Origin: Brachycybe producta
Taxonomy: Eukaryota > Arthropoda > Diplopoda > Playtdesmida > Andrognathidae
NCBI GenBank assembly: GCA_036925085.1
Contig: JAUPFP010000095.1
Span: 312,501-376,500 of the forward strand
Direction of reading: 5' to 3'
Length of the DNA: 64,000 bases
A program made the translations under genes and the position numbers. The notes below the pieces were generated by a model that saw nothing but the letters and a program-made list of their open reading frames with translations, was not told where the DNA came from and made no database searches. This document shows, one piece after another, positions 1,428-61,970 of this stretch (position 1 is its first letter; each line of letters starts with the position of its first letter).

Positions 1428-1633
1428 ACAGGCATTTAGAAATCGGGATGAACACAAGTTGGCTCCGCCCTTTTTATGACGATCGGCAACTTCTAATTGG
1501 TTTGTTGTGTGGTTTGACGTTGAAAAGGGCGGAGCATGTGACGTCAGACTACATAACCAACCAATTAGAAGTTGCCGGTCGTCATAAAAAGGGCGGAGCC
1601 AACATCTGTTTGTCCCGATTTCTAAATGCCTTG
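1428..1633. mobile_element. ACAGGC-family foldback MITE, copy 1
   Basis: A nearly palindromic 206-bp element. Termini ACAGGCATTTAGAAATCGGG at the left and its complement at the right. The 9-bp duplication is CTTATGATG (1419-1427) and CTTACGATG (1634-1642). The inner part carries CCGCCCTTTTTATGACG in both arms and a TGACGTCA in the centre. There is no coding capacity. Confidence 0.88.
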
Positions 1634-1785
1634 CTTACGATGAAGTTAGGATGATGATGATAATATAAGGAAAGCCGGGTTACATTGAAGTGTCCCTTCT
1701 TAAACAATTACTACAGGTGTAATAAACACCTGTTTATGTGTTTTATTATTAAACGGTAGGCCCACTCGAAATCTGTCCCGTTTCC

Positions 1786-2315
1786 CACCATTTATAGGGG
1801 GCGCTGACATCATTAATACTATTATCGTTTGCGAGAAAAACAATTTTTTTTTAAAATAATATTTCTATCGACTTATAAAATAATAAAAGGTAATGTCATG
1901 ATTAAGAAAACAAAGTTAGGGCCTAAACCTATCTTTATAATTTGTTTTAATTCCAATTAAACGTTCAGAAGAGGCAAAAAAAAAGCCCCAACTGCAACCA
2001 GCTCAATAACCGCCACGACTGTACTTCTCTGGTAGATTTATTTTTTTTTCCATTGCGTCGCCTAGCAACGCGACCCAACTGGAAAATGAAGGGCGCCAGT
2101 TTGCCAGTCGTGTGTTATGTTGGGGCTTTTTCGTCTCTTCTGAACGCGTTTAATTAGAAATACAACAAATTATGAAGGTGTGGGTTTATTTTATTTTCTT
2201 ATTCATGAAATAACTTTTTATGTTTTATAAGTCGTTAGAAATATTTTTTAAAAATGGATTTCCACCAGCGATGATAGTATTAACGATGTCAGCGCCCCCT
2301 ATATGGCCCCATTGA
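1786..2315. mobile_element. large foldback element carrying CTCF-like words
   Basis: About 530 bp whose left half (ATAGGGGGCGCTGACATC, then TTATAAAATAATAAAAGG, ATTAAACGTTCAGAAGAG, AAAGCCCCAAC) is mirrored in the right half (GTTGGGGCTTTTTCG, CTCTTCTGAACGCG, GATGTCAGCGCCCCCTAT). The unpaired centre, about 2040-2090, contains GCGTCGCCTAGCAACGCG. No duplication is readable. Confidence 0.8.
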
Positions 2316-3008
2316 CGCCTGTGGCGACTCTCTCGTCCACTTAAGATGAAATTTAAAAGTTTGTTTTAAGTTCTAGAAAGTCAATTATCCAACTTTGTGA
2401 AGAAAATTAAGACACTTGAACTTCAGCTTTTAAACCCTCTGAGCAGCTGGGTTACAGGGTTTCCTACAAATTAAATTCGCAATGCTTAAACTGCATATTA
2501 GCTTTTGTGGTTTTAATGCTAAGCTTTATATATGTTGCTTTTTATGTAGTTTTTCAAATTACTGCATATGTTTGCGCTTTAATGCATTTTTCAAAAGCAA
2601 AAACTTCTGCTTGCTTTTATTTGGTTGAATATCATTGGAAGCAGGTTAATAGCGTTGAAATATCAATTAACCAATTAGATTTCAAGAAAAGTGAAAAGGC
2701 AGGTCAACTGGTTATGAGACTAGGGTTAGCTTTTTGATACAAAATATGCAGTTTAAGGGCTTTTGTTGCGTGAAATTGTAAAAAATCAAGCAGCAAGCAG
2801 CTTTTAAAGCCATATAAAGCGAATATAATGCAGTTTATTTTTCTTCCTCTTGATTGAAATAATGAAAAACATCATTTTCTTGTTATTTGTGATGCATTTT
2901 TGTTTTCTGATCGAGAGATGATTCTCATCCGGTATTTCATCTTGATTTCGTTTTTAAAGATGCCCTGATTTTATTTTGTGTTGTGTCTTTCATACTTGAA
3001 ATGAGGGT
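2316..3008. other. no gene or repeat recognised
   Basis: Ordinary AT-rich sequence. AACCAATTAGATTTCAAG and neighbours look unique. The 76-codon ORF at 2507 has no family resemblance. Confidence 0.5.
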
Positions 3009-3042
3009 TAAAGGAAGAAGGGAGAGAGAGAGAGATTGGGGT

Positions 3043-3073
<31 letters not shown>
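3009..3073. repeat. GA microsatellite
   Basis: Interrupted (GA)n, followed by a TTTC run and a GATGATGATCATCATCATCA stretch to 3140. Confidence 0.9.
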
Positions 3074-3078
<5 letters not shown>

Positions 3079-3512
3079 GAATGAATGCCATGTCCTCATC
3101 TTTCTTTCTTTCTTTCTTGATGATGATCATCATCATCATTCTCATTCCATTAGATATCTTTGAACCGTTCTTTCGTCGTCGTCTTTTTTAGTTTCCACCC
3201 TTCTTCTTCTTCTTCAACTTCTTCTCCCCTTAGTTTCTTCTTTTTCCTTTATAATGTCCCATTCTTTTGTAAAGAAGAAGGGGAGGGAGGGAAAGAGAGA
3301 GAGAGAGAGAGAGAGAAAATACTGAAGAAGAATAATAATTCGAACTCCACCCATTCAAGTCAATGGTGGAAGGGAGTGAAAAATGAGATGAAATTGAATC
3401 AACAACGCCAAAAAAAAAATAAGAAGAAAAATGCGATGATGCTAAAAATCATAAGTATGAAATAAATGAACAAAAGGGGTTGAGAAGAAAAAAAAATGCA
3501 ATGGGAATTCGG

Positions 3513-3515
<3 letters not shown>

Positions 3516-3546
<31 letters not shown>
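3516..3546. repeat. GAT trinucleotide repeat
   Basis: About ten GAT units. They give a poly-Asp or poly-Ile ORF in translation, with no other coding signal around. Confidence 0.9.
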
Positions 3547-6759: not shown

Positions 6760-6967
6760 ACAGGCAATTAGAAAACGGGATGAACAGAAGTTGGCTCCGC
6801 CCTTTTTATGACGAACGGCAACTTCTAATTGGTTTGTTGTGTGGTTCGACGTTGAAAAGGGCGGAGCATGTGACGTCAGACTACATAACAAATCAATTAG
6901 AAGTTGGCGGTCGTCATAAAAAAGGGGCGGAGCCAACTTCTGTTCATCCCGTTTTCTAATTGCCTGT
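6760..6967. mobile_element. ACAGGC-family foldback MITE, copy 2
   Basis: 208 bp, ends ACAGGCAATTAGAAAACGGG and complement. Perfect 9-bp duplication GTCCAAATC at 6751-6759 and 6968-6976, which fixes both termini. The arm text before CCGCCC is GATGAACAGAAGTTGGCT, found in both arms. Confidence 0.92.
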
Positions 6968-7590: not shown

Positions 7591-7753
7591 ACAGGCAATT
7601 AGAAAACGGGATGAACAGAAATTGGCTCCTCGCTTTTTATGAAGAACGGCAACTTCTAATTGGTTGGTTATGTAGTCTGACGTCACACATGCTCCGCTCT
7701 TTTCAACGTCGGGCGGAGCCAACTTCTGTTCATCCCGTTTTCTAATTGCCTTA
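7591..7753. mobile_element. ACAGGC-family foldback MITE, copy 3 (internally deleted)
   Basis: 163 bp with the same outer arms as the copy at 6760. The right arm lacks its inner CGTCATAAAAAGG portion, so the central palindrome is one-sided. Flanks AAACAGGAC (7582-7590) and TAACAGGAC (7754-7762) are an 8/9 duplication. Confidence 0.85.
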
Positions 7754-11649: not shown

Positions 11650-12060
11650 AGGTGGCGCTGATCAAACGCCAAACTGAACAAATGCCATAACTGAAAAAAC
11701 GCCTTTGAACTGAATAAGCGTCAAACTAAATATACACCAAACTGAATAAGCGCCTAATTGAATAAATGCTAAACTGAATAAGCGCCTAATTGAACAAGCA
11801 CCAAACTGAATAAGCGCCTAATTGAACAAGCTCCAAACTGAATAAGCGCCTAATTGAACAAGCGCCAAACTGAACAAGCGCCAGTTTGGCCAAATGTCAA
11901 ACTGAATAATTACCAAACTAAATAAACGCCAATTGGAACAAACATCAAACTGAACAAATGCCAAACTGAATAAGCGCCAAACTAAATAAACACCAAACAG
12001 AATAAGCGCCAAACTGAACTGCTACATTTTTGACATTTGTTCCGTTTGGCATTTGTTTAT
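11650..12060. repeat. GCCAAACTGAATAA minisatellite-bearing foldback, copy 1
   Basis: The array starts AGGTGGCGCTGATCAAACGC and runs through about 20 degenerate 15-16-bp units of the type 'CGCCAAACTGAATAAG'. It ends with two units in inverted orientation (GTTCCGTTTGGCATTTG). The head sequence is shared with the array at 19979. Confidence 0.8.
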
Positions 12061-14183: not shown

Positions 14184-14390
14184 ACATGCAATTAGAAATC
14201 GGGACAAACAGATGTTGGCTCTGCCCTTTTTATGACGACTGGCAACTCTTAATTGGTTGGTTATGTAGTCTGACGTCACATGCTCCGCCCTTTTCAATGT
14301 CGAAAGACACAACAAACCAATTAGAAGTTGCCGGTCGTCATAAAAAGGGGCAGATCCAACTTCTGTTTGTCCCGATTTCTAATTGCCTGT
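14184..14390. mobile_element. ACAGGC-family foldback MITE, copy 4
   Basis: 207 bp, ends ACATGCAATTAG and CTAATTGCCTGT. Flanks CATATTTG and CATTTTTG form an imperfect duplication. The arms read GGGACAAACAGATGTTGGCT and a close complement. The core CCGCCC has decayed to CTGCCC on the left. Confidence 0.85.
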
Positions 14391-19659: not shown

Positions 19660-19865
19660 ACAGGCATTTAGAAATCGGGACTAACACAAGTTGGCTCCGC
19701 CCTTTTTATAACGACAGGCAACTTCTAATTGGTTGGTTATGTAGTCTGACGTCACATGCTCCGCCCTTTTCAACGTCGAACCACACAACAAACCAATTAG
19801 AAGTTCCCGGTCGTCATAAAAAGGGCGGAGCCAACTTGTGTCCGTCCCGATTTCTAAATGCCTGT
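19660..19865. mobile_element. ACAGGC-family foldback MITE, copy 5
   Basis: 206 bp, ends ACAGGCATTTAGAAATCGGG and complement. Perfect 9-bp duplication CTTCCAAAC at 19651-19659 and 19866-19874. The arms before CCGCCC carry ACACAAGTTGGCT on both sides. Confidence 0.92.
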
Positions 19866-19978: not shown

Positions 19979-20188
19979 CGGTGGCGCTGATCAAGCGCCA
20001 AATTGAACAAGCGCCAAATTGAACAGGCGCCAAATTGAATAAGCGCCAAATTGAACAAACGCCAATCTGAACTGACGCCAAACTGAATAAACGCCAAATG
20101 GAAGAAACGCCAAACTGAATAAAAGCCAAAAATTTGGCGGTTATTCAGTTTGGCGTTTGTTCCATTTGGCGCTTATTCAGTCGCCCCA
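19979..20188. repeat. GCCAAACTGAATAA minisatellite-bearing foldback, copy 2
   Basis: Starts CGGTGGCGCTGATCAAGCGC, then about 8 units of 'GCCAAATTGAACAAGC' type, a turn at AAAATTTGG, and inverted units TTATTCAGTTTGGCG and TTCCATTTGGCG. Same head and same unit as the array at 11650, with fewer repeats. Confidence 0.8.
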
Positions 20189-25905: not shown

Positions 25906-26116
25906 ACAGGCAGTTAGAAATCGGAGAGAGAACTTCAGTTGGCTCCGCCCTTTTTATGACGAACGGCAACTTCTAATTGGTTGGTTATCTAGTCTGACGT
26001 CACATGCGCCGCCCTTTTCAACGTCGAACCACACAACAAACCAATTATAGAAGTTGCCGGTTCGTCATAAAAAGGGCGGAGCCAACTGAAGTTCTACCCG
26101 ATTTCTAACTGCCTTT
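25906..26116. mobile_element. ACAGGC-family foldback MITE, copy 6
   Basis: 211 bp, ends ACAGGCAGTTAGAAATCGG. Both arms hold AACTTCAGTTGGCTCC, where copies 1-5 hold AACANAAGTTGGCTCC-like text, so the change is shared by both arms. Flanks GTTTTTAAT (25897-25905) and GTTTTTATC (26117-26125) are an imperfect duplication. Confidence 0.88.
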
Positions 26117-30398: not shown

Positions 30399-31913
30399 GA
30401 CCTCCATTGCTCTAAAGAGCAATGGAGGTATATAGGATCATGCAAGAAAAGGGGGAAAAAAGGATGTCTGTGTGGCTGTGTGTGTGTATGTGTGTGTGTC
30501 CGGAACCGATTTAGTTCCTCGAACAACTCAAGAACGGAATGAGATAAAGACATGCAGTATTTTTTATTTGATTCCGTGGGTCAATATGAAGCTCCTGACA
30601 AAAAATTAGAAAATTTTACCCAGGGGTTATTTTTTTATGAATTTTTTAGAAACAAATTTTGAGTTTTTGGTCATAATTTTTAGTGGGTCGAACAACTCAA
30701 AAACGGGGCCACCTACAATAAAATGTCATCAGACTTAAAATGATGTAAACATTCTGACGATGAAACTGGAAAAAAATTGGAATTTTAGAGCGATTCGATA
30801 TATAAAATTTCGATTTTTTAAAAACGTAATTTTTTTTAAAAAAAATCGAGATTCTTCCTCTTTCCAGTTGTAGCATTCGAAAGGGGGGACTTTTCTATTA
30901 TTTAGGAGGGGTGTTCCTTTTTATGTTCTGTTATTATTTTTGTATATTAGAATACATGTGACGTATTTTCATTTTAAACCCATATTATTACAAATGAATG
31001 ACGCATGCGCATCACATGTAACTATGTCATGTACATGCATACATACATGTGTGATTATCTATATACACATGCGCACACGTGTGTACACGTGCGTACACAT
31101 GCGCACACGTGTGTACACGTGCGTACACATGCGCACACGTGTGTACACGTGCGTACACATGCGCACACGTGTGTACATGTGCGTACACATGCGCACACGT
31201 GTGTACATGTGCGTACACATGCGCACACGTGTGTACATGTGCGTACACATGCGCACACGTGTGTACATGTGCGTACACATGCGCACACGTGTGTACATGT
31301 GCGTACACATGCGCACACGTGTGTACATGTGCGTACACATGCGCACACGTGTGTACATGTGCGTACACATGCGCACACGTGTGTACATGTGCGTACACAT
31401 GCGCACACGTGTGTACATGTGCGTACACATGCGCACACGTGTGTACATGTGCGTACACATGCGCACACGTGTGTACATGTGCGTACACATGCGCACACGT
31501 GTGTACATGTGCGTACACATGCGCACACGTGTGTACATGTGCGTACACATGCGCACACGTGTGTACATGTGCGTACACATGCACACACGTGTGTACACGT
31601 GCGTACACATGCGCACACGTGTGTACACGTGCGTACACATGCGCACACGTGTGTACACGTGCGTACACATGCGTACACGTGTGTACACGTGCGTACACGT
31701 GCGCACACGTGTGTACATGTGCGTACACATGCGCACATGTGTGTACATGTGCGTACACATGTGCACAAGTGTGTACATGTGCGTACACATGCGCACATGT
31801 GTGTACATGTGCGTACACATGTGCACAAGTGTGTACATGTGCATACACATGCGCACAATGAAAAAAAGTTGGTTATTTGATATATGAAAGCATATATTAA
31901 AGCAATGGAGGTC
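30399..31913. repeat. 1.5-kb unit bounded by GACCTCCATTGCT inverted ends
   Basis: GACCTCCATTGCTCTAA (30399-30415) and TTAAAGCAATGGAGGTC (31897-31913) are inverted, and GGAGGTNTATAGG follows the motif at both 30424 and 31907. The unit contains about 650 bp of unremarkable DNA and then the alternating minisatellite. It may be a transposon that carries the array; no duplication was found. Confidence 0.45.
31065..31857. repeat. 30-bp alternating purine-pyrimidine minisatellite, about 26 copies
   Basis: The unit is GTGTACATGTGCGTACACAT plus GCGCACACGT (30 bp). It is repeated in perfect register from about 31065 to 31740, then more divergent to 31857. The first and some late copies have ACACGT in place of ACATGT. 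Nearly every step alternates purine and pyrimidine, so no TAA, TAG or TGA can occur on either strand; this explains open frames of 260-315 codons in all six frames. They are not genes. Such sequence is the classical Z-DNA-forming type. Confidence 0.95.
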
Positions 31914-39071: not shown

Positions 39072-39266
39072 ACAAGCAGTTCTGCCCAGCACTATGATTT
39101 CGTTTGCCACGCCCTTTTATGAGCGTCAGACGAAATATGTACCAATTAGAAATTGCCGTCCTTTTTAAAAAGGGCGGGACATGTGACATCAGAGACCAAT
39201 TCGCAATTGATGACGCTCATAAAAGGGCAGGGAAAATGAAATTTTAGTGCTGGGCAGAAGTGCTCG
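39072..39266. mobile_element. ACAGGC-family foldback MITE, divergent copy 7
   Basis: 195 bp. The arms carry TTCTGCCCAGCACTATGATT and its near complement, unlike copies 1-6. The core keeps GCCCTTTTATGAGCGTC, CAATTAGAA and the central GTGACATCAG. The duplication is ATTCATGAT (39063-39071) and TTTCATGAT (39267-39275), 8/9. Confidence 0.85.
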
Positions 39267-39638
39267 TTTCATGATGGGATCCGATTTGAGATCTGATAAG
39301 ATATGACCTCTCAAAGTCCATATCCGGCCCATTTTTCACTCTTTAGTTTAGGGAACGGATCAGATCTGACTGATCGCAATACAATATTCGCCTGCCCCTT
39401 TTTGAAACCAGTATGTATTTAGTAAATCTATTATTGTACACTGTGTACATATGTGCTCCAACATCTGGCGGATCTGGTCTCTTGTCTCTTCCTTTTAACT
39501 TGGCAGATTGGCTAGATTTGGTAGATTTTGAGCTGCCGCGAGTCTGCCCTATTCGCTTTCACGGACGGATAAATAACGGATTTGATCTGTCCATAAGTCA
39601 GTCCAGGACTCGGTTGTATTTGTGCATGTTAGTTATAT

Positions 39639-44624: not shown

Positions 44625-47600
44625 GTGAGTCTCTCTCTCTCTTTCACGCTTTTTTGTTTTAATTTTCGATTTGTATTAACAAATCGAATTCTGCTTATTC
44701 TGTGTTTCAGCTAAAGAGCAACATGAAGGAGAAATTGAAATTGATTTAGAAACTAGAAAGGTAGCCGAATCACTTAATAGTATTTTTCATGTTGATATCT
44801 TTCAAAATAAACTTTTTATGGACAAAAATTACAAAATATCTTCTGCTTAAAAATTTGTGACATTTTCACATTGAGATAGAAAGCTTATTTTAAAAGATAT
44901 TAACATGAAAATACTCTTTAAGTGATTGAGAGACATCCTTCTAGTTTTTAAAATACATTCAAGATTTTCTTAATTTTCTATTAGAAGTATGTCAAAATAA
45001 TCAGAGTTTGAATTGTGTTTGCAATTTAAACCACTTTAATAATTATTTTTGTGTTGATATTTTTCAAAATAAACTTTTATAGAGAAAAATTTAAAAAAAA
45101 TATATTCTGTTTAATGTTGGGGTCATTTTCAAACTGAGATAAAAAGCTGATTTTAAAAGATATTAACATGAAAATAGATTTAATTGATTGAGAAACGACC
45201 CTTCTAGTTTTTAAAACACTTGTTTTCTTAATTTTTGTCTTCGGAAAAAAAAAACAAAGAACAACTTTAAGAAAGCATTGAAATCGTTTTAGAAACTAGG
45301 AGAGTTACTGGATCACTTGAAGAAAGTTCTTTTTTTAAAAAAAATAATTAGCAAGTTATAAATTCGTTAGCGTTATCAAACGATGCCCAACTTGAAGTGA
45401 AAAACGAAATAAAATGGTTAAGTGATAAACGCTCACGTGATTTTTTTACTGTTCTAGTTTCTAAGACCAATAATATTCTATTTTTTTATTATTTCGCATT
45501 ACTTACGTCTTGAACACATTTCAGATGAAACAAAAGCCTTAGAAACCACTTCCATCCAAGAAAAGAAAACAGCCTTAAAATCTCGACGACGTAACGAATC
45601 CGAAGAAACGAACGAAGAAAAAACAATCGATTATCCAGAATCCGAAGAAGAAGAAGAAGAAGACGACGACGACGACGATTTGGAAAACGAAGACTCCGAC
45701 CCGTTGGCATCGTCCAACAGACGAAAGAACAAAGGGCCGAAATGTAACGGCGGTCGTAGGAGACGAGCGTCTCGCTCTCTGCCTGTAATTTTACCTTTGG
45801 TTGAAAGTTCTTTTACGACGAGAACGACTGATGATACTAAGAAGTTTTTTATTTTTTGGGTAGGCTTCTCGTGACGGTGGTGAATCGTCTGAACCGTCCA
45901 GTCCGACTCCTGCCTCATCTCCGGCCTTAAATACTCACTTTGAGTGTCCGGTTTGTCATTTGGTTCTCGGATCTCAGCATGATTTCACTCAACACATAAG
46001 GCAACACAACAGCGAGGAACCATCGACCACACACACTTGTAGTTTGTGCGGAAAGACTCTTAGTTCGGCCAGTTCTCTCGATCGTCACATGTTGGTTCAC
46101 TCTGGAGAGAGGCCATTCAAAGTAAGACGTTTATTTTCAACGGTTCGTAACTTTTTATTCATATTAGAAATTCAAAGTTTATTTCTTGAAACAAAACGAA
46201 TAGAAAAATTTCGTGGTGATGCTTTTACGACAATATTGTTGAAAATAAACTTATTTTTGACGTTTATTTTCGATCACTTTTTAAACTAGCGTAAAATTTA
46301 ATTTTTATTGTTTTATCATCTTGAAAATATCATCACGGAATTGCTTTTTTATTGAACTTTTTCTAAAAGTTGCTATTAGAAGGGGACCTGGTTCACAATT
46401 TGACTAAAATGTAGCGGCATAAGTACTCGGTCGCTCTCTACATATATGTACTGTATATTGTACAGTATATTATACTTCAGTGACTTCATGGTGCACATGT
46501 GCCATCTTGTATTTGCTTCTGTTAATTATTTCATGGTGTGAACCAGGTCGTATTTTTTTTAAGAAAAAAATGTTTTCACAAAACATGTTATTTACAAACA
46601 AAATCCACTCAAGATGGAGGAAGAGCTTTGTTCATTTTATTTTGGTCAGATGATTTCGGTTTTTGCTGCAGATTGTGTTTATTGCACAATTTTAATGTTT
46701 TGTTTATTAAACAGGTATAAATTGAAATTTTAAAATAAAATAAATATATAAAATTTTATAAAATTAAATAATTAAAATTAATGAAGCTGGATGAAGTGAT
46801 TAAAATAAATTAAATAAACTAAATTAAGTAAATTAAATAAATTAAATCAAATAAATTAAATACAGTAAATAAATGGGTGAAATAAATAAAATTTTAAAAT
46901 TTAAATTAAATTTATAACGCTGTTCAAATCTTCAACACTTATTATTTAAATAATTTAGCTATATTTTAAAATAAAGTTTTCACTAAATTGTTCATTTTAA
47001 AATTATTTTGAAATTTCAAATATAATAGTTTTTAACTTTGAATGTAATTAATCTTTAATTGTTTGTTTTTTAAATAACAATTTCTTGTCATTGTGAAGGC
47101 TAATTGTGTTTTTCCTTTTTTTTCCCCCCAGTGTCGTATCTGTGGAATGGCTTTTACGACAAATGGAAACATGCATCGGCACATGAGAACGCATCACGAA
47201 GGAGCATCTCACTATCCATTGGAAGCAAACAGTTTAACGCCTTCTCCGACGTTGCCAATGGATGGTTCAAACTGCGAAGCATCTGTCGGAAGTCCCGTAA
47301 TATCTCCTCCTAAGAAACACCGATCTCCGAACAAAAGGAAGCAACAGATCGTTCAAAAACCAAGTACGGACACTAAGGACAGTAACGATGGCATCGAGAT
47401 CGGATTGGACGGTGGTCGCGATAGCAGAAATACAACCGACGAGAATAGTCCGATTGGAAAAACAGCTTCGAAGAGTCGAACTTCGTCTCCTGCCCCATCT
47501 GCCTGTAAAAGAGCGAGAAAGAAACTTTTGGAGAGATCGAAAGAACAATTAAATAATGACGGCAACAATAATAACGTCAACGGAACTGTAGGATCGGATT

Positions 47601-50600
47601 GCGAAGAGACTTTGTTGTGTCCCGTATGCAATAAGGGATTCTTGTGTAAGGTCGGACTACGCAAACATCTCGAACTTCATCCAAAGAGCGACCTCTGGTG
47701 TCGAGAGTGCAATGACCCGATGTCGTTTTCAACCTGCTGGGCTTTGCTCAAACATCTACGTATCACTCATTCCAAGTTTAAGGACTTGGATGTCGGAGTT
47801 GCCGATGAGGTTCTGCCGTCTCGTACTCGTTCCTCTCCGAACGTCCTAAATTCAAACTCTTGTTCGGCCGATGTTGGCTTTCACCATCTCACTTTCGTCG
47901 ACTTTTCGGCTTACAAATTTCCGCTGATTGCCAAGTCACTATGCGAGAAACACACTCGACAGCCGAGCAGCGAATATCATAAGTTTCAATGCATTCAATG
48001 TAAAAAAGCGTTTCCATGTAGCAGTTCTCTACAGTTACACCAGTGTACAGCACATTTGACGAAATTGGTTGCAGGAGACGAAGAACAACACCGTATGACG
48101 AAAGAAACTGTTTCCAGTGTTTCGACGGTTCAAACTCTCGATAGCAAACCAACTGCATCTTGTTCGGACTGTCACGCGGTTTTCGCCAGTCATCGGCAAC
48201 TCGAGGGACACCGACTACGACATCAGATCACCGAAAAGTGCGCCACTCCTTATTCGGTCGAAGGAGTTTCGAAAAAATCAACCAAACAATCGAGTCCTGC
48301 ACCGGCAGATCTTGCGCCGCAAATAAACAAACAGAATTTTTTAGCTCTATTCGAACTACAAAGTAAAACGCCGGAATCGACATCTGTTCCAACTGATAAA
48401 AACGAGTGGGATAAGAAAAGAGCCGCAAAAAAAACGAAACGATCCGATCGTAATAACGATGAAGACCAATCACAAATTAAACGTTGCCGCAAGACGAGTC
48501 AGGATAAAGATCAAGGCGATTTTGCCGACATTCAGTCTATTTTGGCAGTGACGAACACTGCAAGTATAATTCCATCGATGGAATCGTCTTCGACTCCGAT
48601 TAAAGCTCAAGTGGCTTCTCCACCACCACCACCACCACCTTCAGAGGCGCCCTTTTCTCCAAAACGCGCGGATTCAGCAGCTGCAAGTCCCGAACTTCCT
48701 GTAGAACCATCTGACTTTTTAGTGCAAGATTCGCCACCGTTAAATGACATCAAAAACGACGATCGTGTGCCGGATCATTCAACGCCATCCGTTTCTGTTT
48801 CGAGTAAAAATGGTTGCATAAAAAAACAGTTCTCTTGTACGGTTTGCGAGAAAGTTTTACCAAACCTTCGTGCTCTAAAGAACCACAGTCGAACTCACCT
48901 CGAGTCGCAAAATTCGTTTCGGTGCACTTTTTGTTCGTACCATGGGCAAGACGAGACTTCTCTACTGAATCATCTGAAAACGCATAACAAGGAGAGGCCA
49001 TTTGTTTGTACAGTTTGTCAGAATTCATTTACGACGAGAACAAACTGTGAAAAACATATTAGAAAACGGCACAGAAGACTTGCAAAAACTGATATTAGCC
49101 TTTTGATACAGAATTTTACCTCCGATGCGCCAGAAACGGTCGCGGAAGTTCCAAACACAGTCTGCAAACGTTGCGAAGTCGATTTTAAAAGCGTTAAAAT
49201 GTTGAGAATGCATGCTTGCTCTACAGAATCTAGAGTACTAGAAAGGTTTCAACGAGATCCATCGCCGCAAGTAGAGGAAGAACCGTGTTTCGAGGTAAAT
49301 CGGGTTCAATCGCAGAGTGAAGGTGTGGTTCAGATCGTTGCAAATCCGCCTTCCGAAGCTCCGATTCTCGATCTGAGCAGCAGCAACACTACTTGTGATT
49401 GGTCTACGATGAGACCCACTTCTCATTCGAGCACAATTCATCAGAATTACGACTGCGCTATGGACTTGTCGGATCGACGTTTAAATACGAACAGACCGAA
49501 CGAAGAATTGTCCAATATCGAGTCTCTCATCAATCGATCAACTTGTGACAGACGATCTCAAGAAACAACAACAAACATTCCTCCTCAGGAACAACCTCTC
49601 GATTTGGCTTTACATCCTGTAGATCTATCGATGAAAGCCAAGACACCGATTGGTCCGTTTGTTCCAATAAACTATTCCGGAATGCCGATGGACTTGTCCT
49701 CTCGAGGATCTTCTAACGGCATTAGCCTTCATGCTCCCGCAGCAACCTCTACACCATTACGTACGAGTCGAGTGCCTCACAGTTTGCCTTCGACGTTTCA
49801 GGGCCGAGGTCCAAATGTTTTTTTGCCTTCTTCTGGTCTTCTACCTCAGGCCGAAGGTTCTTTATCTTCGGTAAGTGTAATACCGATCCATTCGCTACGT
49901 CATTCGGTGTGCATCGGTGGTAACATCAGTGTCACAACAGCTGCACAGCTGCCTCCACCACCACCACCTCCTCTTCCTCCTCCTCCACCACCACCACCAC
50001 CACCACCTGTGCCTGGACTAAACCTTCCGGTTTTTCCATCTTTCGTTATGCCTCCGACAACAACCGGACCACAAATATCACCCATTATAACTCATCAATC
50101 GCCGCAACCGCGTAGCAGCAAATCTTTTTCTCATAGTAGAGCGAGAGTATCTGGTGGACAATCTTCGATGAGTTCTTCATCATCATCATCTGGAGTTTTA
50201 AGCCACTTCTTGCTCAAGAAACAAAAACAGAGGCGGTATCGTACAGAACGACCGTTCAAATGTGTTCATTGTTCGGCTGGTTTCACATTACGATCCAATA
50301 TGGAACGTCACATAAAACAACAGCATCCTCAGTTTTGGTCTTCAAAGGCTCGAGGACGAAAAGTGTCGCTCTCGGGATCTCCTTTACCTCCTCAGCATTC
50401 TTCGTCATCGACGATGGCTTCTGTGTCAAATGCAGACTCTTTATTGGCGTCTCCTACCGCGGTTGGTTTGTCGTACAGCGGCAGTAGCAGTAGCGGTGGA
50501 GAATCGAGTTCTCATATTTTTTCGTCGCATCATTCTCCTCGTTCTTCGTCAGCCAGTAAGAACGATTCTCCAAAAACAGCTTCTTGTTCTCCGATGACCA

Positions 50601-52492
50601 TTTCAACGGAGGTCAAACAGGCGTTATCATATCAAATAAAACAGAGACAAGTCTTGGAACTTGAATCGAATCTAACGTTGATTGCCGATATGGCTGTAGC
50701 TGCTGCAGCTGCTGCTGCGTTTACTTCTTCTGTTGCATCTTCTCGAGATACTCCTACGACATCGTCGAAATCGTTGCCAAGTACGGTCAAAGTGGTCGAG
50801 ACGAAGTTTCCTCCGATGTCTGTCGCTTCTCGGTCTGCCGGAGATCTAGTGATAAAAAATGAGGGCACTTCTTCGATAACTGCTGCTCTCGACACGGAGA
50901 AATCATCGCAAATCGATACGGATGGCAAAGTTCTCGACGATACCGAGGATTTGGCAAGTGTTTCTAAACTCGTAGACACAGCCAACCGTCAAAGTATACA
51001 AGAATTATTTCGTGAACAACATCAAGTTGAAGAATCGGAACAAGTTGTGACAACTCCGGCGATGAATTCTTTACTTATCGGGCACAGTTTGTCACCGTCC
51101 ATTTCTCATCATCATCATCCAGTTGCATTGGAAGCATCTCTAAAGGGAGAAGTTAGTGGATCTGGTTCGGGAAACGAGTCAATCGTCGTCGTCGGCGGCG
51201 ACATTCCGTCATCCGGTTCAACGTGCGAGGAACGCGCAACATTAAGAGAGGGCCGTCGAAGTGCTTACGTTAATGCTCCAAACAGAGTTGCTTGTCCATA
51301 CTGCTATCGTCAGTTTCCGTGGACGAGTTCTTTGCGTCGTCACATTCTTACACATACAGGACAGAAACCATTCAAATGTCCGCATTGTCCACTTTTGTTT
51401 ACGACAAAATCGAACTGTGATCGACATCTGTCGAGAAAACATAGCGGGCTTTGTCACGATGTCGGTAGTGTTGGAGGAGTGCCGGTTCCGATGCCAACCG
51501 TTGCCGTGAGTTCGAGTGTTTTGGCTGCTGTCGTAACAGCCAACGCTAACACCGGTGATTGTGCTATTCGTAATGCACCAGATCGCCCGTATCGTTGCCA
51601 TATGTGTCTGAGTAGCACTTTTTCAACGTTGAGTAATCTTCAGAAACACTTGATTACGAAACATTCCATGACGCCGCTTCAAGTTCAAGAGCAGCAGCAC
51701 CATCAACAACAACTTCAGGTTCCAGTTTCAGCCGTTTCAAACGAGTTTTCACCTTTGGACAGTGGTAATAATGGTGGTCATTTGAACATCAAAACAGAAT
51801 ACGAAACAGGAGACGGTTCCTCTTCGGTGTCGCCTTCGGAACGATGGGGCGAGTCAGAAGAATCTGGCGAAGACGTCGATGGCCTTCACAACGACAATGG
51901 ACATCCACATATCGGAGAACCGTTATTCTTCTGTCACGTGTGCCTCAAATCGTTCGCTATACGAGAAGATTGCCTTCAACATCTGGAAAGAGAACATCCA
52001 GATGAACACGTTACTTTATTGTGTGCTGCTTCGGAGTCCTCGTCATCTGATGTAGGAAAATTGTCTACGCTTTCGGTTGGTGGTGTCGTGGTCGTCGAGA
52101 AAAAGCTCGAAGATGAGGTTCTTCGCATAGTGTCGACTCCACCTCGTTTGATTGACGGTCAGAAAAACCACGGTAAAGAGTCGGAAGCGTGGTCCTCCTC
52201 CTCCTCTGAAGAAGAAGAAGAAGAGGAAAACATCATTAATCCGGACAAAATAAACTCGACCGATCTCGAGTCTCCCGTTCTTCGTCTTAAAGAAAGTGAA
52301 GTTTGTTCGCAGAACGTCACAGTTGAAGCTGATTTAAAGACGACCGAACGACCACCTGATTGCGAAGCCTCTCTCAACACTGTAGAGGAAGAAGAAAAGA
52401 AACTTGAAGAGGAGGACAAAGCCGAGAGTGAAATCGTAACAAAGAAACAAGAAGAATCGTCGTCGACAAATGACAAAGCCGAGAATCAGTGA
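44400..52492 (+). CDS. RREB1: RREB1/hindsight-family C2H2 zinc-finger transcription factor, 5' end not found
   Basis: Four coding exons join in frame: 44400-44624, 45525-45784, 45864-46121 and 47132-52492 (stop TGA). All junctions are GT-AG and the phases agree (1, 0, 0). They encode about 2030 residues, so the protein is long like vertebrate RREB1. Sixteen C2H2 units are visible; the one near 49163 is atypical, with Cys replacing the last His. Recognition as RREB1 rests on family-specific blocks: the [19 protein letters not shown] finger followed by [10 protein letters not shown]; the non-finger block [17 protein letters not shown] before a finger; [16 protein letters not shown]; and a late finger pair reading [20 protein letters not shown] then [15 protein letters not shown] and PMDLS (about 49.6-49.7 kb) fit the CtBP co-repressor motif PxDLS. 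Known family role: nuclear DNA-binding regulator downstream of Ras/MAPK, acting in epithelia. The exon at 44400 starts mid-codon, so at least one coding exon lies further upstream and was not recognised. Confidence 0.93.
44728..45030. mobile_element. 'CTAGTTTCTAAA' element in RREB1 intron A-B
   Basis: GAAACTAGAAAGGTAGCCGA to GAGACATCCTTCTAGTTTTT and ATAATCAGAGTTTGAATTG. It lies wholly inside the 900-bp intron 44625-45524, starting about 100 bp after the donor. Confidence 0.75.
45031..45330. mobile_element. second 'CTAGTTTCTAAA' element in RREB1 intron A-B
   Basis: TTTTTGTGTTGATATTTTTC, GTTTAATGTTGGGGTCATTT, GAAACGACCCTTCTAGTTTT, then GTTTTAGAAACTAGGAGAGT, which begins another left arm. Together with its neighbour it makes up most of this intron. 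Confidence 0.7.
45525..45784 (+). CDS. RREB1: RREB1 coding exon B (acidic and basic linker)
   Basis: Acceptor TTTCAG ends at 45524. The exon completes the split codon from exon A and encodes [19 protein letters not shown], a long Glu/Asp tract, then a basic stretch RRRRASRS. The donor is CCT|GTAATT at 45785, which is weak but gives the correct phase 0. The following intron is only 79 nt (45785-45863), and reading through it meets a stop, so splicing is required. Confidence 0.75.
45864..46121 (+). CDS. RREB1: RREB1 coding exon C (zinc fingers 1 and 2)
   Basis: Exactly 86 codons. Finger 1 (about 45945) reads [19 protein letters not shown]; finger 2 (about 46038) reads [18 protein letters not shown], followed by the linker HSGERPFK and a GTAAGA donor at 46122. 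The fingers break off at a codon boundary and resume with finger 3 in the next exon. The finger 2-3 pair is the conserved N-terminal signature of RREB1. Confidence 0.92.
46122..47131 (+). other. RREB1 intron C-D
   Basis: 1010-bp intron between finger 2 and finger 3, with an extremely AT-rich segment of AAATTAAATAAATT words (46720-46910). A palindrome TACTGTATATTGTACAGTAT lies at 46449-46470. Confidence 0.7.
47132..52492 (+). CDS. RREB1: RREB1 large terminal coding exon (zinc fingers 3 to 16)
   Basis: The exon starts after TTTCCCCCCAG at 47131 and is open for 1786 codons. Fingers lie near 47132, 47618, 47699, 47990, 48161, 48839, 48923, 49009, 49163 (atypical), 50261, 51295, 51379, 51598 and 51933. 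Between them are long disordered Ser/Pro-rich segments, proline runs (about 48620 and 49950-50010), polyalanine (about 50700), and a Glu-rich tail from about 52200. Three PxDLx-type motifs cluster at 49.59-49.70 kb. The single huge exon holds most of the protein and is free of the transposon remnants that fill the introns. Confidence 0.93.
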   Translation, partial: CRICGMAFTTNGNMHRHMRTHHEGASHYPLEANSLTPSPTLPMDGSNCEASVGSPVISPPKKHRSPNKRKQQIVQKPSTDTKDSNDGIEIGLDGGRDSRNTTDENSPIGKTASKSRTSSPAPSACKRARKKLLERSKEQLNNDGNNNNVNGTVGSDCEETLLCPVCNKGFLCKVGLRKHLELHPKSDLWCRECNDPMSFSTCWALLKHLRITHSKFKDLDVGVADEVLPSRTRSSPNVLNSNSCSADVGFHHLTFVDFSAYKFPLIAKSLCEKHTRQPSSEYHKFQCIQCKKAFPCSSSLQLHQCTAHLTKLVAGDEEQHRMTKETVSSVSTVQTLDSKPTASCSDCHAVFASHRQLEGHRLRHQITEKCATPYSVEGVSKKSTKQSSPAPADLAPQINKQNFLALFELQSKTPESTSVPTDKNEWDKKRAAKKTKRSDRNNDEDQSQIKRCRKTSQDKDQGDFADIQSILAVTNTASIIPSMESSSTPIKAQVASPPPPPPPSEAPFSPKRADSAAASPELPVEPSDFLVQDSPPLNDIKNDDRVPDHSTPSVSVSSKNGCIKKQFSCTVCEKVLPNLRALKNHSRTHLESQNSFRCTFCSYHGQDETSLLNHLKTHNKERPFVCTVCQNSFTTRTNCEKHIRKRHRRLAKTDISLLIQNFTSDAPETVAEVPNTVCKRCEVDFKSVKMLRMHACSTESRVLERFQRDPSPQVEEEPCFEVNRVQSQSEGVVQIVANPPSEAPILDLSSSNTTCDWSTMRPTSHSSTIHQNYDCAMDLSDRRLNTNRPNEELSNIESLINRSTCDRRSQETTTNIPPQEQPLDLALHPVDLSMKAKTPIGPFVPINYSGMPMDLSSRGSSNGISLHAPAATSTPLRTSRVPHSLPSTFQGRGPNVFLPSSGLLPQAEGSLSSVSVIPIHSLRHSVCIGGNISVTTAAQLPPPPPPPLPPPPPPPPPPPVPGLNLPVFPSFVMPPTTTGPQISPIITHQSPQPRSSKSFSHSRARVSGGQSSMSSSSSSSGVLSHFLLKKQKQRRYRTERPFKCVHCSAGFTLRSNMERHIKQQHPQFWSSKARGRKVSLSGSPLPPQHSSSSTMASVSNADSLLASPTAVGLSYSGSSSSGGESSSHIFSSHHSPRSSSASKNDSPKTASCSPMTISTEVKQALSYQIKQRQVLELESNLTLIADMAVAAAAAAAFTSSVASSRDTPTTSSKSLPSTVKVVETKFPPMSVASRSAGDLVIKNEGTSSITAALDTEKSSQIDTDGKVLDDTEDLASVSKLVDTANRQSIQELFREQHQVEESEQVVTTPAMNSLLIGHSLSPSISHHHHPVALEASLKGEVSGSGSGNESIVVVGGDIPSSGSTCEERATLREGRRSAYVNAPNRVACPYCYRQFPWTSSLRRHILTHTGQKPFKCPHCPLLFTTKSNCDRHLSRKHSGLCHDVGSVGGVPVPMPTVAVSSSVLAAVVTANANTGDCAIRNAPDRPYRCHMCLSSTFSTLSNLQKHLITKHSMTPLQVQEQQHHQQQLQVPVSAVSNEFSPLDSGNNGGHLNIKTEYETGDGSSSVSPSERWGESEESGEDVDGLHNDNGHPHIGEPLFFCHVCLKSFAIREDCLQHLEREHPDEHVTLLCAASESSSSDVGKLSTLSVGGVVVVEKKLEDEVLRIVSTPPRLIDGQKNHGKESEAWSSSSSEEEEEEENIINPDKINSTDLESPVLRLKESEVCSQNVTVEADLKTTERPPDCEASLNTVEEEEKKLEEEDKAESEIVTKKQEESSSTNDKAENQ

Positions 52493-55997: not shown

Positions 55998-56196
55998 ACA
56001 GGCAAGTAAGTGCTGTAAAATACTGTCGTTTGCCCCGCCCTTTTATGAGCGTCATACCAAATATCAACCAATTAGAAATGGAAAAGGGCGGGGGGTATAT
56101 GACGTCAGACCAAATAACAAACCACTTAAAGTTGTCATTCCTCATACATGTAAAAGGGCGGGGAAAACGACTATTTTACTGTGCTTACTTGCCTGT
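55998..56196. mobile_element. ACAGGC-family foldback MITE, divergent copy 8
   Basis: 199 bp, ends ACAGGCAAGTAAG and CTTACTTGCCTGT. The arm text TGTAAAATA..TCGTTT occurs in both arms only in this copy. The core has CCCGCCCTTTTATGAGCGTC and TGACGTCAGACC. Flanks TGCTAAGAC (55989-55997) and CGCTGAGAC (56197-56205), 7/9. Confidence 0.87.
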
Positions 56197-57205: not shown

Positions 57206-57970
57206 ATATTTATCTTGAATTAAATTCTTAACAAAAATTCATTTTATCAAGAAAAAAAAAATGAATATATTATACTTTCAAAAATTATGTCACTTTTTTT
57301 TAAACAAATATTGTTAAACTAGTTGGGTAACCCGTCATAAATGACGGCAGCAAAATTCACAGGCAATTGTGCCCAGCATTAGAATTTCTTGAGAAAAAAA
57401 AAGCGGTTCATTTATTTATATAAATTCCGACGTGCTTCAAGGTTTGTACAGCGTTAAACACATATACACAGACCTGGCTTAATATATATAATATATATAT
57501 ATAGTAGAAAATTGAACTTACATTAGTCAGATCCAAATATACAGAGAAAGTCTCTTTTCTTTTCTTTTAAAATAGCTTTGCTTTTTATGTAATACCAGTT
57601 AATGTTTAAGAACACATTCCAATTGCAAGTTAAATTCCATTGCAAAATTATATTACAGTATAAATATTTTTTATTATCTTCTAAGAAGTGCCTGGCTTGT
57701 TAAAATTATTGGGTTTTTTTAAATCGTTTTTTATTTGCGCTTCATGTTCGCATTCCTTCTAAGTTTTATTATTGAATTTAGAATTTTGCTTTCAGATTTA
57801 CAATTGTTGATTTTAGGTTATTTTAAAGTGTTGAGCGCCTCTCGAACTCTTGATTATTCTGTCGTTCAGGTGCAAAGTAAAGGTGAACTTGATTGTGTTT
57901 GAGAAACTAGAAGGGTAGCTCAATCAATTGAGAGAATTTTCATGTTGATATATTTTAAAGTAAGCTTTTT

Positions 57971-58620: not shown

Positions 58621-60149
58621 TAGGAAGTCAATGTACAGTAAATGAATATCAATGATGATGATCAGTTTTTGAAAAAGGACACAAATGGAAATAATTGATA
58701 CAATGTGTAAGGATCAAGGTAATAAATTTCTATTTGGGCTTTTGTAATATTGTTTTTTTTTCTGTTGTAAATTTCGTGAATTTGAATGTTTTTAATTAAG
58801 TTGAGAGAGAAAATGGAGGAGAAAAAAAATGAAAGTTTTCGTTTTTTTTTAGTTATTTGATTGAAATCTCCTCTCCTTGAGTGAGTTTCATTCCATTTGT
58901 AAATTAGTCGTTTTAGCAATACGCACATTTTGACCAAAATAGGCCCCCCCCCCTTTATATCAAATCACCATTTAAAAAACAAAAAGTGTAATATTGTAAT
59001 ATCACAAATTAATTATTATTCATCATATCAACCAACATGATTAGAATGTTTTTGTTTGTTTGTGGGGAGGGCGGGTTGTGTCGTGGGGGTGGGACGATGG
59101 AATTGTTATATTTCCTGATATGCACCTTTTCTTTTTCATTTTTCGTTATTTTTAATTAAAAATTTTAAAATGTTTAAAAAAATAATGGATAAAAAAAATG
59201 AAATATTTTAAAATATTTTTTAGAAGACAAACTGTTATAATTATATATTATTGAAAGAAAAATTCCGAATTTGGGTTAAATCAGGGCTGTGTGTGTGTGG
59301 GAGGGTTATTACGTTTTTTTTATTTTCAAATTTTGTTTTATTTTTAACATTCCTTTCAAAAAAAAATTGTCATATTTTGAGTTTTGTACATTATGTTTTT
59401 TTTTCTTTCTCTCTTGTTATGTTTACATTGAAATTGCTGAATTTTTTTTGTTCTTATGTTAATGTATTATTTTTTATTAATATTTTTTTTGTTTAGTTTA
59501 AAAAAAAATGCCTGAAAAAAATTTGCATAAGGAAAACAATTTTTGTCCTGTTTAATAATTTTTCTATCTGGACAAAAACGATTTCTAATTGATTTAAATG
59601 TTTGTAATTTGTTGTAATTGATTACTTTTGTTTTGAGCACATATTTTCGTATATTTAAAAATAAATCATACAAAATGAATAATGGATTTATTTATTTAAA
59701 TTTATGCATTAATTTTTTTTTTCTAGGGTCTCTTAGAAGTCAAAGTTCAAGAGGTTTTCTATCAACCAGTGGCACGTTTTTTTTTTTGGAAATGATGGAC
59801 CTATTGACAATCACCGGTAATTTTACAAAGTAACGCTCGTGTAGAAAGGTCCGTTCAGGTTGAATCGTAACCAAGGAATTTTCCTCCCAACACAAGCTGT
59901 TGTCAGAAATAGGCATGGGGGTGGAGGGTGACGTAGGCAATATGATGAGTGATACGTGGTTATATCACCCTGCAGCCTAATGCCGTTTCGAATATTGACA
60001 GAATTTACCAGAGCAGCCAGATCAAAAATATTTGGATATTTATCCCGGCTGACAAACTGGTAGAATTCGCTGGGGTCGTTGTTGCATTCTTAAATTTTTT
60101 TAAAAAATTTTTTCTGAAAGTGTCCTTGTACCGCTCAGGAGGTCGCTGC
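58621..60149. other. no gene recognised
   Basis: AT-rich, with T and A runs and short ORFs of low complexity. CAACCAGTGGCACG near 59763 may be a decayed transposon end. Confidence 0.45.
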
Positions 60150-60196
60150 GGACCACAAGTGGCCCGCGGGCCCCCAGTTTGAGACCACTGGACTAA
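60150..60196. mobile_element. single hAT-like terminus
   Basis: GGCCCGCGGGCCCCCAGTTT then GAGACCACTGG resembles the end of a hAT element (GGCC-rich text then 'TTTGAGACCACTGG'). The opposite end was not found in the preceding kilobase. Confidence 0.4.
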
Positions 60197-60439
60197 TGTT
60201 TTAATTTTTATAGAATTAATTATTTTTGAGAATGTTGGCTTCATCAGTAACTATTACAGTATTTTAATGCATTGAAGGATTGTTATATTGTTTTTCCCCC
60301 CTACAATATACAACTTTGACCTTTTTTTCAAGATAAAGTATTTACAATTTACGATTTTTACAATTTTCTTAATTTTTATACAAATACATTTTTATGGTAC
60401 GAAATGCGTAACAAGTTAAAACTTCAAATGCATATTCAG

Positions 60440-61330
60440 CTTTGTGACACCCTGTAGAAACAGAAGGTGAAACACTTAAGTCAAAATTCAGTCTTGACAG
60501 TAAGACACCCCTTGGTGCACAGATGTTCGGACATGGGTGGCCCGAATTCTAGAGAATTCGTGGAACCAAGTCCGATCGTTAGAAAATTGGAAATAAGTTC
60601 CAAGAATATTTCTGATTATGATTTAGTATCCCCAGCCCAGGGCAATGATTGGCCCAGTTGGTCAATCATTAAGCCCTGAGGTGACAGTTGCCACTCCCAG
60701 GAGACCGGACAAGTGAGCCTGAGACTTGAGTGTGAGGACAGTCAGAGTAGAGAGCTCAAACTAGACAGTCAGTCATGAGAGTTCAAAGAGTAAACTTAGA
60801 GTGAGAGTTTAGACACTGAGTCTGACTGATAGTAACAGAGTTTTGTAAAGAATGTTATCAAGAATGTAATAATCAAAGAGCTAGTAAAGAGACATTATTA
60901 CACATCAACCTGTGTGAGTGTTGTGTATGTGAACTGTATTGGGTTTCTGTACTCCTAAAATAGAGGAGTATCCAGCAGAAGGTACTCAGACACAGCCTGA
61001 GTCCCTCTGCCTGGAGCCTCCAGCAACTCAACAAAAAGGACTAGTTTCTTCGGCATCGTCACGCCCTATATCCAAAGATCCCTAGGAAAGATGGTCTTTT
61101 TGTGGGCCGTGCCAGGCAAGGCAAGTAAATGTCGCGCCCGGTGAACCCAACCCCCAGAGGTTCAACAGCAATAGAGGCTGGTCCGCAGCAGTCGACAACA
61201 GAGTCGACCCCGGCACCACCGATTCAGCAGAGGGAACAACGTCGTCAACGAGGACGAAGTTCCTCACGCATCGTCGGTACTGGAGCCAAAGGTACGAGAG
61301 GTGGGCCAGCCACGTCACAGCTTCATGTAT
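60440..61330 (+). other. GC-richer island, possible retroelement 5' end
   Basis: Between AT-rich flanks, 60460-61330 has clearly higher G+C and many GAGAGT/CAGTCAG words. A short frame from 61129 (MSRPVNPTPRGSTAIEAG, then Gln/Arg-rich) ends at 61335. The layout, a regulatory-looking 600 bp followed by a basic, Pro-rich start, could be an LTR plus gag start, but I find no matching second LTR, no clear primer-binding site and no reverse transcriptase. It could also be an exon of an unknown gene, with CCAAAG|GTACGAG as a donor. Confidence 0.3.
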
Positions 61331-61439
61331 TTTGAGCTTCTCAAGGGGTATAGATTCTGGTTCCGATTTTAATGACCTAGTATTTATCCCTAGTTATAGT
61401 ATTTCTCAAACTTTTCGTTGTGAAAGACCACTAGAAAAG

Positions 61440-61632
61440 ACAGGCATCGGTAGACAGCTTCAGAATTTCTTTGGCATCCGCCCTTTTATGAGCGTCAGAC
61501 CAAATATCAACCAATTAGAAATAAAAAGGGCAGGCCATGTGACATCAAACCCAGAAACAAACCAATTAAAAATTGATGACGTCGAAAAAGGGCGGAGCCA
61601 AAGAAATTCTAAAGCTGTCTACAGATGCTTGT
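61440..61632. mobile_element. ACAGGC-family foldback MITE, divergent copy 9
   Basis: 193 bp, ends ACAGGCATCGGTAGACAGCT and AGCTGTCTACAGATGCTTGT. Both arms share AGAATTTCTTTGGC before CCGCCC. Flanks CTAGAAAAG (61431-61439) and CTAGATAAG (61633-61641) are an 8/9 duplication. Confidence 0.88.
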
Positions 61633-61776
61633 CTAGATAAGTTGTCGATGCGCCTAAAAAAAGTCTACTGCGCATGCACTTGCGCAAGTAGTCTTGAGCC
61701 ATTAATAATCAGCACACTCAGGAGTCAGTTCGCCTCATACTTAGAGCACAGTGTAAACATATTTTTTTCTTTTCGT

Positions 61777-61970
61777 TCCCTTCTGTGTGGTCAGCAAGAT
61801 GCAGTCGTTTGCTCCGCCCATTTATAAGCGTCAAACCTAATATCAACCAATTAAAAATTGAAAAGGGCGGACCATGTGACGTCAAACCAAGTAACAAACC
61901 AATTAGAAGTTGCCGTTCCTCATAAAAGGGCGGTGCAAACGACTGTATCTTGCTGAGCACACTTGCCTGT
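61777..61970. mobile_element. ACAGGC-family foldback MITE, divergent copy 10 (left tip degraded)
   Basis: The right end is GCTGAGCACACTTGCCTGT. The left arm matches only from GTGTGGTCAGCAAGATGCAG inward, and its terminal ACAGGC is not recognisable. The core has CCGCCCATTTATAAGCGTC and GTGACGTCAAACC. It lies about 145 bp from copy 9 and 265 bp upstream of the RPRD1 start codon. No clear duplication. Confidence 0.8.

What the first reader, a model, noticed from the sequence alone, without database searches (positions are those of the whole stretch)
1428..61970. ACAGGC MITE family whose arms differ between copies but stay matched within each copy
Ten copies share the tip ACAGGC, an inner CCGCCCTTTTATGA.CGTC block, and, where readable, a 9-bp duplication (perfect at 6760 and 19660). 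Between tip and block lies a 28-33 nt stretch that varies strongly: TTAGAAATCGGGACAAACAG at 14184, TCGGTAGACAGCTTCAGAAT at 61440, AGTAAGTGCTGTAAAATACT at 55998, TTCTGCCCAGCACTATGATT at 39072. Yet in each copy the opposite arm is the near-exact complement of that copy's own version, and arm length is conserved. Independent mutation should break the pairing, so something copies one arm onto the other (hairpin-templated repair, arm-to-arm gene conversion or replication through a foldback), or new matched arms are acquired at transposition. The 9-bp duplication would suit Mutator-like or Merlin elements.
Basis: partly seen in the sequence, partly recalled or inferred. Interest (0 to 1): 0.82.

Follow-up and report, generated by a model that had tools for sequence, protein, structure and literature searches.

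The report
MITE subfamilies with paired terminal modules
A very abundant family of short, non-coding jumping DNA, probably in an animal genome, comes in several subfamilies, each with its own matching pair of ends, so the matched but variable arms in this window are mostly inherited subfamily structure and not ongoing repair of each copy.

Summary
The window has 8 complete copies and 3 partial ones of an ACAGGC-tipped MITE; own-arm identity is 0.89 against 0.63 between copies, and 9-bp duplications are real. The per-copy explanation mostly fails. Genome-wide, arms recur: one 24-nt arm has 2848 hits, an S6/S6b module 3039, and four clusters hold 165 of 225 sampled arms. Inside the largest clean subfamily a copy's own arms match no better than other copies' (0.896 vs 0.898, 16 copies). 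A Helitron-borne lineage keeps its founder's left/right mismatch in 22 of 29 copies. What remains: in the best-sampled subfamily pairs (S1/S3, S6/S7) the outer ~57 nt differs at the same columns in both ends, while the adjoining interior keeps fixed left/right differences; two small subfamilies show exceptions. So both ends seem to change together when a lineage is founded, probably by recombination or conversion through the shared core. Galileo is a close published parallel. The autonomous partner was not found; the 9-bp duplication fits Mutator-like elements, but no link was shown.

The parts
1428..1633 (.). complete A-type (S6) MITE copy, 206 bp
   Evidence: tip+arm+core at both ends, duplication score 8 of 9
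6760..6967 (.). complete A-type (S6b) copy, 208 bp, identical 31-nt arms, perfect 9-bp duplication GTCCAAATC
7591..7642 (+). left end of a partial A-type copy; no partner end found by the scan
14184..14390 (.). complete A-type (S6) copy, interior in the opposite orientation to 1428
   Evidence: duplication score 6.5; sequence
19660..19865 (.). complete A-type (S6) copy, perfect 9-bp duplication CTTCCAAAC
25906..26116 (.). complete A-type (S7) copy
   Evidence: duplication score 7
39072..39267 (.). complete B-type (S3) copy
   Evidence: duplication score 7.5
55998..56196 (.). complete B-type (S5) copy
   Evidence: duplication score 7; interior alignment
57359..57390 (+). fragment of an S2 end; the 9 nt before it (GCAAAATTC) equal a flank seen beside Helitron-borne S2 copies
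   Evidence: sequence compared with flanks; end approximate
61440..61632 (.). complete B-type (S1) copy, duplication CTAGAAAAG/CTAGATAAG
61793..61970 (.). second, left-truncated B-type (S5b) copy, joined to 61440 in the finding
   Evidence: intact right end at 61970, cores at 61814 and 61915; start approximate

Best explanation
This is a large MITE family (tip ACAGGC, 31-nt arm, core CCGCCCTTTTATGANCGTCA, a further interior, 9-bp target-site duplication) made of related subfamilies. Each subfamily carries one terminal module (tip, arm, core; about 57 nt) at both ends. Copies look internally matched because both ends descend from a founder that already had matched ends; in the best-sampled clean subfamily the two arms then mutate independently (shown). 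The inferred step: new subfamilies are founded when the terminal module at both ends changes together while the left/right-asymmetric interior is kept. The likeliest route is recombination or gap-repair conversion between inverted ends or between related elements, guided by the core that lies at both ends of a copy, followed by amplification of the symmetric product.
For: Core: 9889 hits at up to 2 mismatches against 4 control; exact tip+core 1751 against 0; S1 arm 2848 against 0; S6/S6b module 3039 against 0. Four clusters hold 165 of 225 sampled arms. In 55 duplication-supported non-Helitron copies own arms match at 0.874, others at 0.621, and 0 of 2000 permutations reach it; inside S1 (16 copies) 0.896 vs 0.898. 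Private S1 changes are not mirrored (1 mirrored, permutation mean 0.88); a rare S1 variant occurs in 10 exact arms genome-wide, 0 of 10 with an exact same-variant partner. A small sublineage (76 arms at up to 1 mismatch) has both arms changed in 11 elements, 22 of 76 arms; for the exact S6b module 26 of the 100 listed arms are paired (the two searches differ in stringency). Helitron-borne S2: founder mismatch kept in 22 of 29. S1 vs S3: 12 columns differ in both ends and none in one end only within columns 1-57, and left/right consensus differences start at column 58; S6 vs S7: 5 columns in both ends, none in one (columns with at least 60% consensus).
Against: Excess of own-arm match inside subfamilies remains in S6 (12 copies, 0.934 vs 0.860, 0 of 2000 permutations), S7 (6, 0.948 vs 0.874, 1 of 2000), S5 (5, 0.710 vs 0.634, 14 of 2000) and S3 (7, 0.833 vs 0.792, 36 of 2000); I ascribe it to sub-subfamilies but traced genome-wide only one. 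S4 (3 copies) has left/right consensus differences at columns 31, 35 and 40, S5 (4 copies) at column 54 and S7 at column 56. L048:3947 has two changes mirrored in both arms, found exactly nowhere else. Helitron-borne copies show 3 of 29 CC/CC and 1 of 29 AC/AC at the diagnostic site, a hint of occasional in-place conversion or of a Helitron sublineage. With gaps counted, interiors also differ slightly between S1 and S3+S4 (0.042, 11 of 5000 permutations). The founding step itself is not observed.
Confidence: 0.78

Rival explanations
1. Arms of individual resident copies are continually homogenised by hairpin-templated repair or arm-to-arm gene conversion.
For: Own-arm match over all copies; L048:3947 with two mirrored changes found exactly nowhere else; 4 of 29 Helitron-borne copies matched at the diagnostic site; excess within S6, S7, S5 and S3.
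Against: No excess in S1 or in S1 private changes; 0 of 10 rare-variant arms paired; 38 of 40 one-mismatch arms without a partner within one mismatch; 22 of 29 Helitron-borne copies keep the founder mismatch. Searches that ask for near-exact partners miss decayed ones.
Confidence: 0.12
2. Each transposition resets both ends to one template (for example through repair synthesis of a folded intermediate), so new insertions start symmetric and only later decay.
For: Shared lineage variants are mostly two-armed, private S1 ones one-armed; the lineage spread by a Helitron instead of its own ends keeps its mismatch.
Against: Some copies with a duplication have unlike arms: L035:7633 (S7/S6b arms, identity 0.77, duplication score 8) and L041:799 (0.77, score 7.5), so resetting is not obligatory.
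Confidence: 0.2
3. Each subfamily tracks a different autonomous element and transposase; selection for binding by that transposase fixes the same sequence at both ends, and MITEs acquire ends from the autonomous elements.
For: Terminal modules are the most subfamily-specific part while tip and core are near constant; MULE-domain open frames exist in this genome, 21 matches.
Against: No long element with exact ACAGGC tips and a duplication within 9 kb was found in the 51 sequences of 3 kb or more that I hold (342,690 bases), a small part of the genome; independent selection would have to hit the same base at each of 12 columns in both ends.
Confidence: 0.3
4. The arm pairing is a chance or assembly artefact.
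For: None found.
Against: Pattern controls 0 to 4 against thousands; perfect 9-bp duplications in 15 of 94 non-Helitron pairs against a null rate of 0.00011.
Confidence: 0.01

Closest known systems
Galileo (P superfamily) in Drosophila mojavensis, PMC3573991 (passages and part 1 of 2 of the Discussion seen)
   Same: Several subfamilies defined by TIR sequence; 98-100% identity between the two TIRs of a copy; copies with both TIRs of one subfamily and the interior of another; chimeric copies; authors propose ectopic recombination and conversion as a source of new subfamilies.
   Different: Galileo has 7-bp duplications, TIRs averaging 668 bp and 170 annotated copies, and its chimeric copies lack matching duplications; here the module is about 57 nt, the duplication 9 bp, arm hits run to thousands, and one chimeric copy has an 8-of-9 duplication.
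Tm1 Mutator/Foldback family of root-knot nematodes, PMC3169594 (passages seen)
   Same: 8-10 bp, mostly 9-bp, duplications; MITE-like members; conserved and variable motifs inside TIRs; TIRs of one element 93% alike on average.
   Different: Tm1 TIRs are largely tandem repeats of about 14 bp with asymmetric outer motifs; no sequence link tested.
Mutator-like groups of animals such as Phantom, and Rehavkus (the outgroup there), PMC6446971 (passages seen)
   Same: Phantom 8-10 bp and Rehavkus 9 bp duplications; invertebrate hosts.
   Different: No transposase has been tied to these MITEs.

Membership tests
MITE (non-autonomous TIR element) | short, inverted ends, target-site duplication, high copy number | tested here: met
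   55 duplication-supported copies of 134-216 bp, 9-bp duplication, thousands of arm hits
Mutator-like (MULE) superfamily | 8-11 bp target-site duplication | tested here: met
   15 of 94 pairs perfect at 9 bp, 4 at 8, 1 at 10, 0 at 5, 6, 7, 11 or 12
Mutator-like (MULE) superfamily | mobilised by a MULE transposase with the same ends | tested here: inconclusive
Merlin superfamily | IS1595-type transposase (PF12762) with the same ends | not tested
   search sent repeatedly and never answered
Galileo / P superfamily | 7-8 bp duplication | tested here: not met
   duplication is predominantly 9 bp; the 7 bp is from PMC3573991, the 8 bp recalled; transposase not searched
Ordinary subfamily structure | discrete recurrent arms, each fixed at both ends, private changes unmirrored | tested here: met
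   for S1 and one S6 sublineage; S3, S5, S6 and S7 only partly resolved

The most novel reading that the evidence does not exclude
The transposition cycle itself copies one ~57-nt end module onto the other, so symmetry is renewed when the element moves by its own ends and is lost when it is carried passively: the same MITE inside a Helitron-like repeat has kept its left/right mismatch through many copies.
Probability: 0.2. Interest if true: 0.65.

Novelty: new member of a known kind. Interest (0 to 1): 0.36.

Why it matters
It turns a striking pattern into a testable one. How transposons keep their two ends alike while the ends themselves evolve is an open question, and this family offers thousands of copies, an asymmetric interior that marks left and right, and a Helitron-borne lineage as a natural control without end-dependent transposition.

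Tried and rejected
Per-copy arm conversion was tested by exchange of right arms within subfamilies and by mirrored private changes, and rejected as the general cause for S1. A first end-finder that used best-match mode missed most window copies; a second mispaired inner segments; the third was used. A search for long elements with exact ACAGGC tips and duplications in 51 sequences of 3 kb or more gave none; the open frames listed there were not searched against families, except the zinc-finger one. A pattern for A-type whole elements did not complete. Chance matching was excluded by shuffles. Rows dropped: of 125 pairs (some spurious), 55 were kept for the main test (duplication score 6.5 or more, no Helitron flank flagged); 53 of these 55 have both arms in one subfamily group and entered the within-subfamily tests. 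For interior comparison, copies with interior over 100 nt were kept: 15 of 16 S1, 6 of 7 S3, 3 of 3 S4, 4 of 5 S5, 12 of 12 S6, 6 of 6 S7. The loci are mostly on contig C1 and were chosen by an exact core or tip+core at one end.
Full report
Setting. The window is bases 312501-376500 of contig C95 in a genome of 295,300,729 bases in 442 contigs.

Observation. The shared core has 6 matches in the window against 0.02 expected. A tip-plus-core scan finds 8 complete copies, all 8 with duplication score 6.5 or more of 9, besides 2 spurious rows, and 3 partial copies. Own-arm identity averages 0.89, between-copy 0.63, shuffled 0.50. In 2 of 8 copies (1428 and 14184) another copy's right arm is the better match. 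So the pattern is real, with small corrections.

Genome-wide abundance. The core at up to 2 mismatches occurs 5035+4854 times, control 1+3. Tip, 20-45 nt and exact core occur 915+836 times, control 0. A whole-element pattern of about 190 nt gives 489+507 hits, control 0, with many elements counted on both strands. The 100 arms listed, all from contig C1, repeat a few sequences with a spread of rarer ones.

Subfamilies. From 91 sequences (360,330 bases) I collected 225 arms. Average-linkage clusters at 0.2 distance number 27; the four largest hold 65, 43, 35 and 22 arms, 165 of 225; a few of the rest are spurious ends. The sample over-represents S2 because of how loci were chosen. S1 (ATCTGTAGACAGCTTCAGAATTTC) has 1411+1437 hits at up to 2 mismatches, control 0. 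The S6b module at up to 2 mismatches, which also takes in S6, has 1520+1519, control 0. Arms are mostly 31 nt (80 of 110), and the B-type consensus arms line up column by column; they are related, not unrelated.

Duplication. Of 94 non-Helitron pairs with readable flanks, perfect duplications number 15 at 9 bp, 4 at 8 and 1 at 10, and none at 5, 6, 7, 11 or 12; the null rate at 9 is 0.00011. At least 7 of 9 matching in exact register occurs in 39 of 94 against a null fraction of 0.0035.

Test of arm copying in copies. For 55 copies with duplication support and no Helitron flank, own arms agree at 0.874 and other pairs at 0.621; 0 of 2000 permutations reach it; own is the best or joint best match in 22 of 55. 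Two of 55 have arms of different groups: L035:7633 (S7/S6b) and L071:213, whose left arm is shortened. Inside subfamilies: S1 (16 copies) 0.896 own, 0.898 other; S2 (4) 0.914, 0.910; S4 (3) 0.842, 0.834; S3 (7) 0.833, 0.792 (36 of 2000 permutations reach it); S5 (5) 0.710, 0.634 (14 of 2000); S7 (6) 0.948, 0.874 (1 of 2000); S6 (12) 0.934, 0.860 (0 of 2000). So the clean, large subfamily shows no excess, while the looser groups do. Counting changes from the consensus, S1 has 25 left and 26 right changes with 1 mirrored, permutation mean 0.88; S6 has 35 and 30 with 20 mirrored, mean 6.77, 0 of 5000 permutations; S7 has 18 and 14 with 11 mirrored, mean 3.47, 25 of 5000. The mirrored S6 and S7 changes other than the two of L048 recur in other sampled copies or arms, as sub-subfamilies would.

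Genome-wide checks by place. A rare S1 variant has 10 exact arms, 0 of 10 with an exact same-variant partner. A sublineage with three differences from S6b has 76 arms at up to 1 mismatch, 22 of 76 paired in 11 elements; for the exact 35-nt S6b module 26 of the 100 listed arms are paired. The searches differ in stringency, but the sublineage is clearly two-armed. The 25-nt stretch with both mirrored changes of L048:3947 occurs exactly only in the two arms of that element; of 40 one-mismatch arms 2 are paired with each other, and their letters were not shown, so some could carry both changes plus another. This copy is a candidate for recent symmetric change.

Helitron control. Of 35 S2 pairs, 29 sit at the same place inside a longer repeat that in most copies ends in a hairpin, TTACCCCA and CTAGT, with unrelated sequence after it; that end matches what I recall of Helitron 3' ends. 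Such copies spread without using their own ends (inference). At one arm position the founder had G on the left and C on the right: 22 of 29 copies keep it, 3 are C/C, 1 is A/A, 3 are otherwise changed. Of the four S2 copies with their own duplication, two (L004, L035) have G in both arms and two are changed otherwise. Of the first 100 listed C-type arms genome-wide (1564 in all), 6 are in C/C pairs. So a standing mismatch persists in most resident copies.

The terminal module. After orienting copies by interior and looking at columns with at least 60% consensus, S1 and S3 differ in both ends at 12 columns and in one end only at none within columns 1-57; their left/right consensus differences are absent in columns 1-57 and numerous from column 58 on. 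S6 and S7 differ in both ends at 5 columns (8, 27, 28, 29, 46) and in one end only at none; fixed left/right differences start at column 56 (S7) or 76 (S6). Exceptions: S4, with 3 copies, has left/right differences at 31, 35 and 40; S5, with 4 copies, has one at 54; S3 left and right also lean to different letters at two arm columns below the 60% limit. Arms differ between S1 and S3 far more (0.57-0.60 identity against 0.89-0.91 within S1) than interiors do (0.795 against 0.846 with gaps counted; 0.882 against 0.885 with gaps left out). The within-minus-between difference for S1 against S3+S4 is 0.268 for arms (0 of 5000 permutations) and 0.042 for interiors (11 of 5000). S5 has a left inner half like S1 and a right inner half that resembles the A-type, with arms 0.76-0.81 alike in 4 of 5 copies.

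Reading. Shown: subfamilies with paired terminal modules; independent decay of arms in S1; persistence of a mismatch in Helitron-borne copies; an interior that keeps left and right identity. Inferred: when a lineage is founded, the module changes at both ends, most likely through recombination or repair synthesis guided by the core present at both ends. L035:7633, with an 8-of-9 duplication, carries S7 and S6b arms, and L041:799 has arms only 0.77 alike, so exchange between lineages happens and unlike arms are tolerated.

Known parallels. Galileo in Drosophila mojavensis has TIR-defined subfamilies, near-identical TIRs within copies, chimeric copies and copies with another subfamily's interior, and its authors invoke ectopic recombination and conversion (PMC3573991, passages and part 1 of the Discussion). 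Tm1 combines mostly 9-bp duplications with foldback-like ends (PMC3169594, passages). MULEs have 8-11 bp duplications, and Phantom and Rehavkus occur in animals (PMC6446971, passages). Plant MULEs with several TIRs are a further case of end rearrangement (PMC3310237, passages). The genome has 21 MULE-domain matches, 17 of 21 in stop-to-stop frames of 694-1088 aa, but none was tied to these MITEs.

Verdict. Real pattern, mostly ordinary cause. The remaining puzzle, paired change of the two ends at lineage founding, is known in kind and unusually well laid out here.

Noticed in passing
L003, L007, L018, L021, L024, L027 and others; fragment in window near 57359: A Helitron-like repeat (3' hairpin CCCGTCATTTATGACGGG, then CTAGT) holds an S2 MITE and has spread it; the 29-nt diagnostic arm end has 1564 exact hits genome-wide.
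   Followed up: partly
G000:C5:5402932-5405766, C2:4233697-4236531, C38:896639-898720: MULE-domain matches come in outward-facing pairs, two of them with the same 2550-base spacing and frames of 1003-1088 aa, as in a large inverted or foldback element.
   Followed up: no
L030:1460-1828: A MITE copy whose interior unit of about 60 nt is repeated in tandem several times, a possible start of a satellite.
   Followed up: no
window 31064-31857: Tandem array of a 30-nt unit, 26.5 copies, partly self-complementary and open in several frames.
   Followed up: no
window 19988-20181 and 11658-12019: Degenerate 16-nt repeats (CGCCAAACTGAATAAG type) at two places, one of them with an inverted pair at 20082-20181.
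   Followed up: no
window 47078-52492: Single 1804-aa open frame with C2H2 zinc fingers; resembles RREB1/hindsight proteins (name recalled, not tested).
   Followed up: partly
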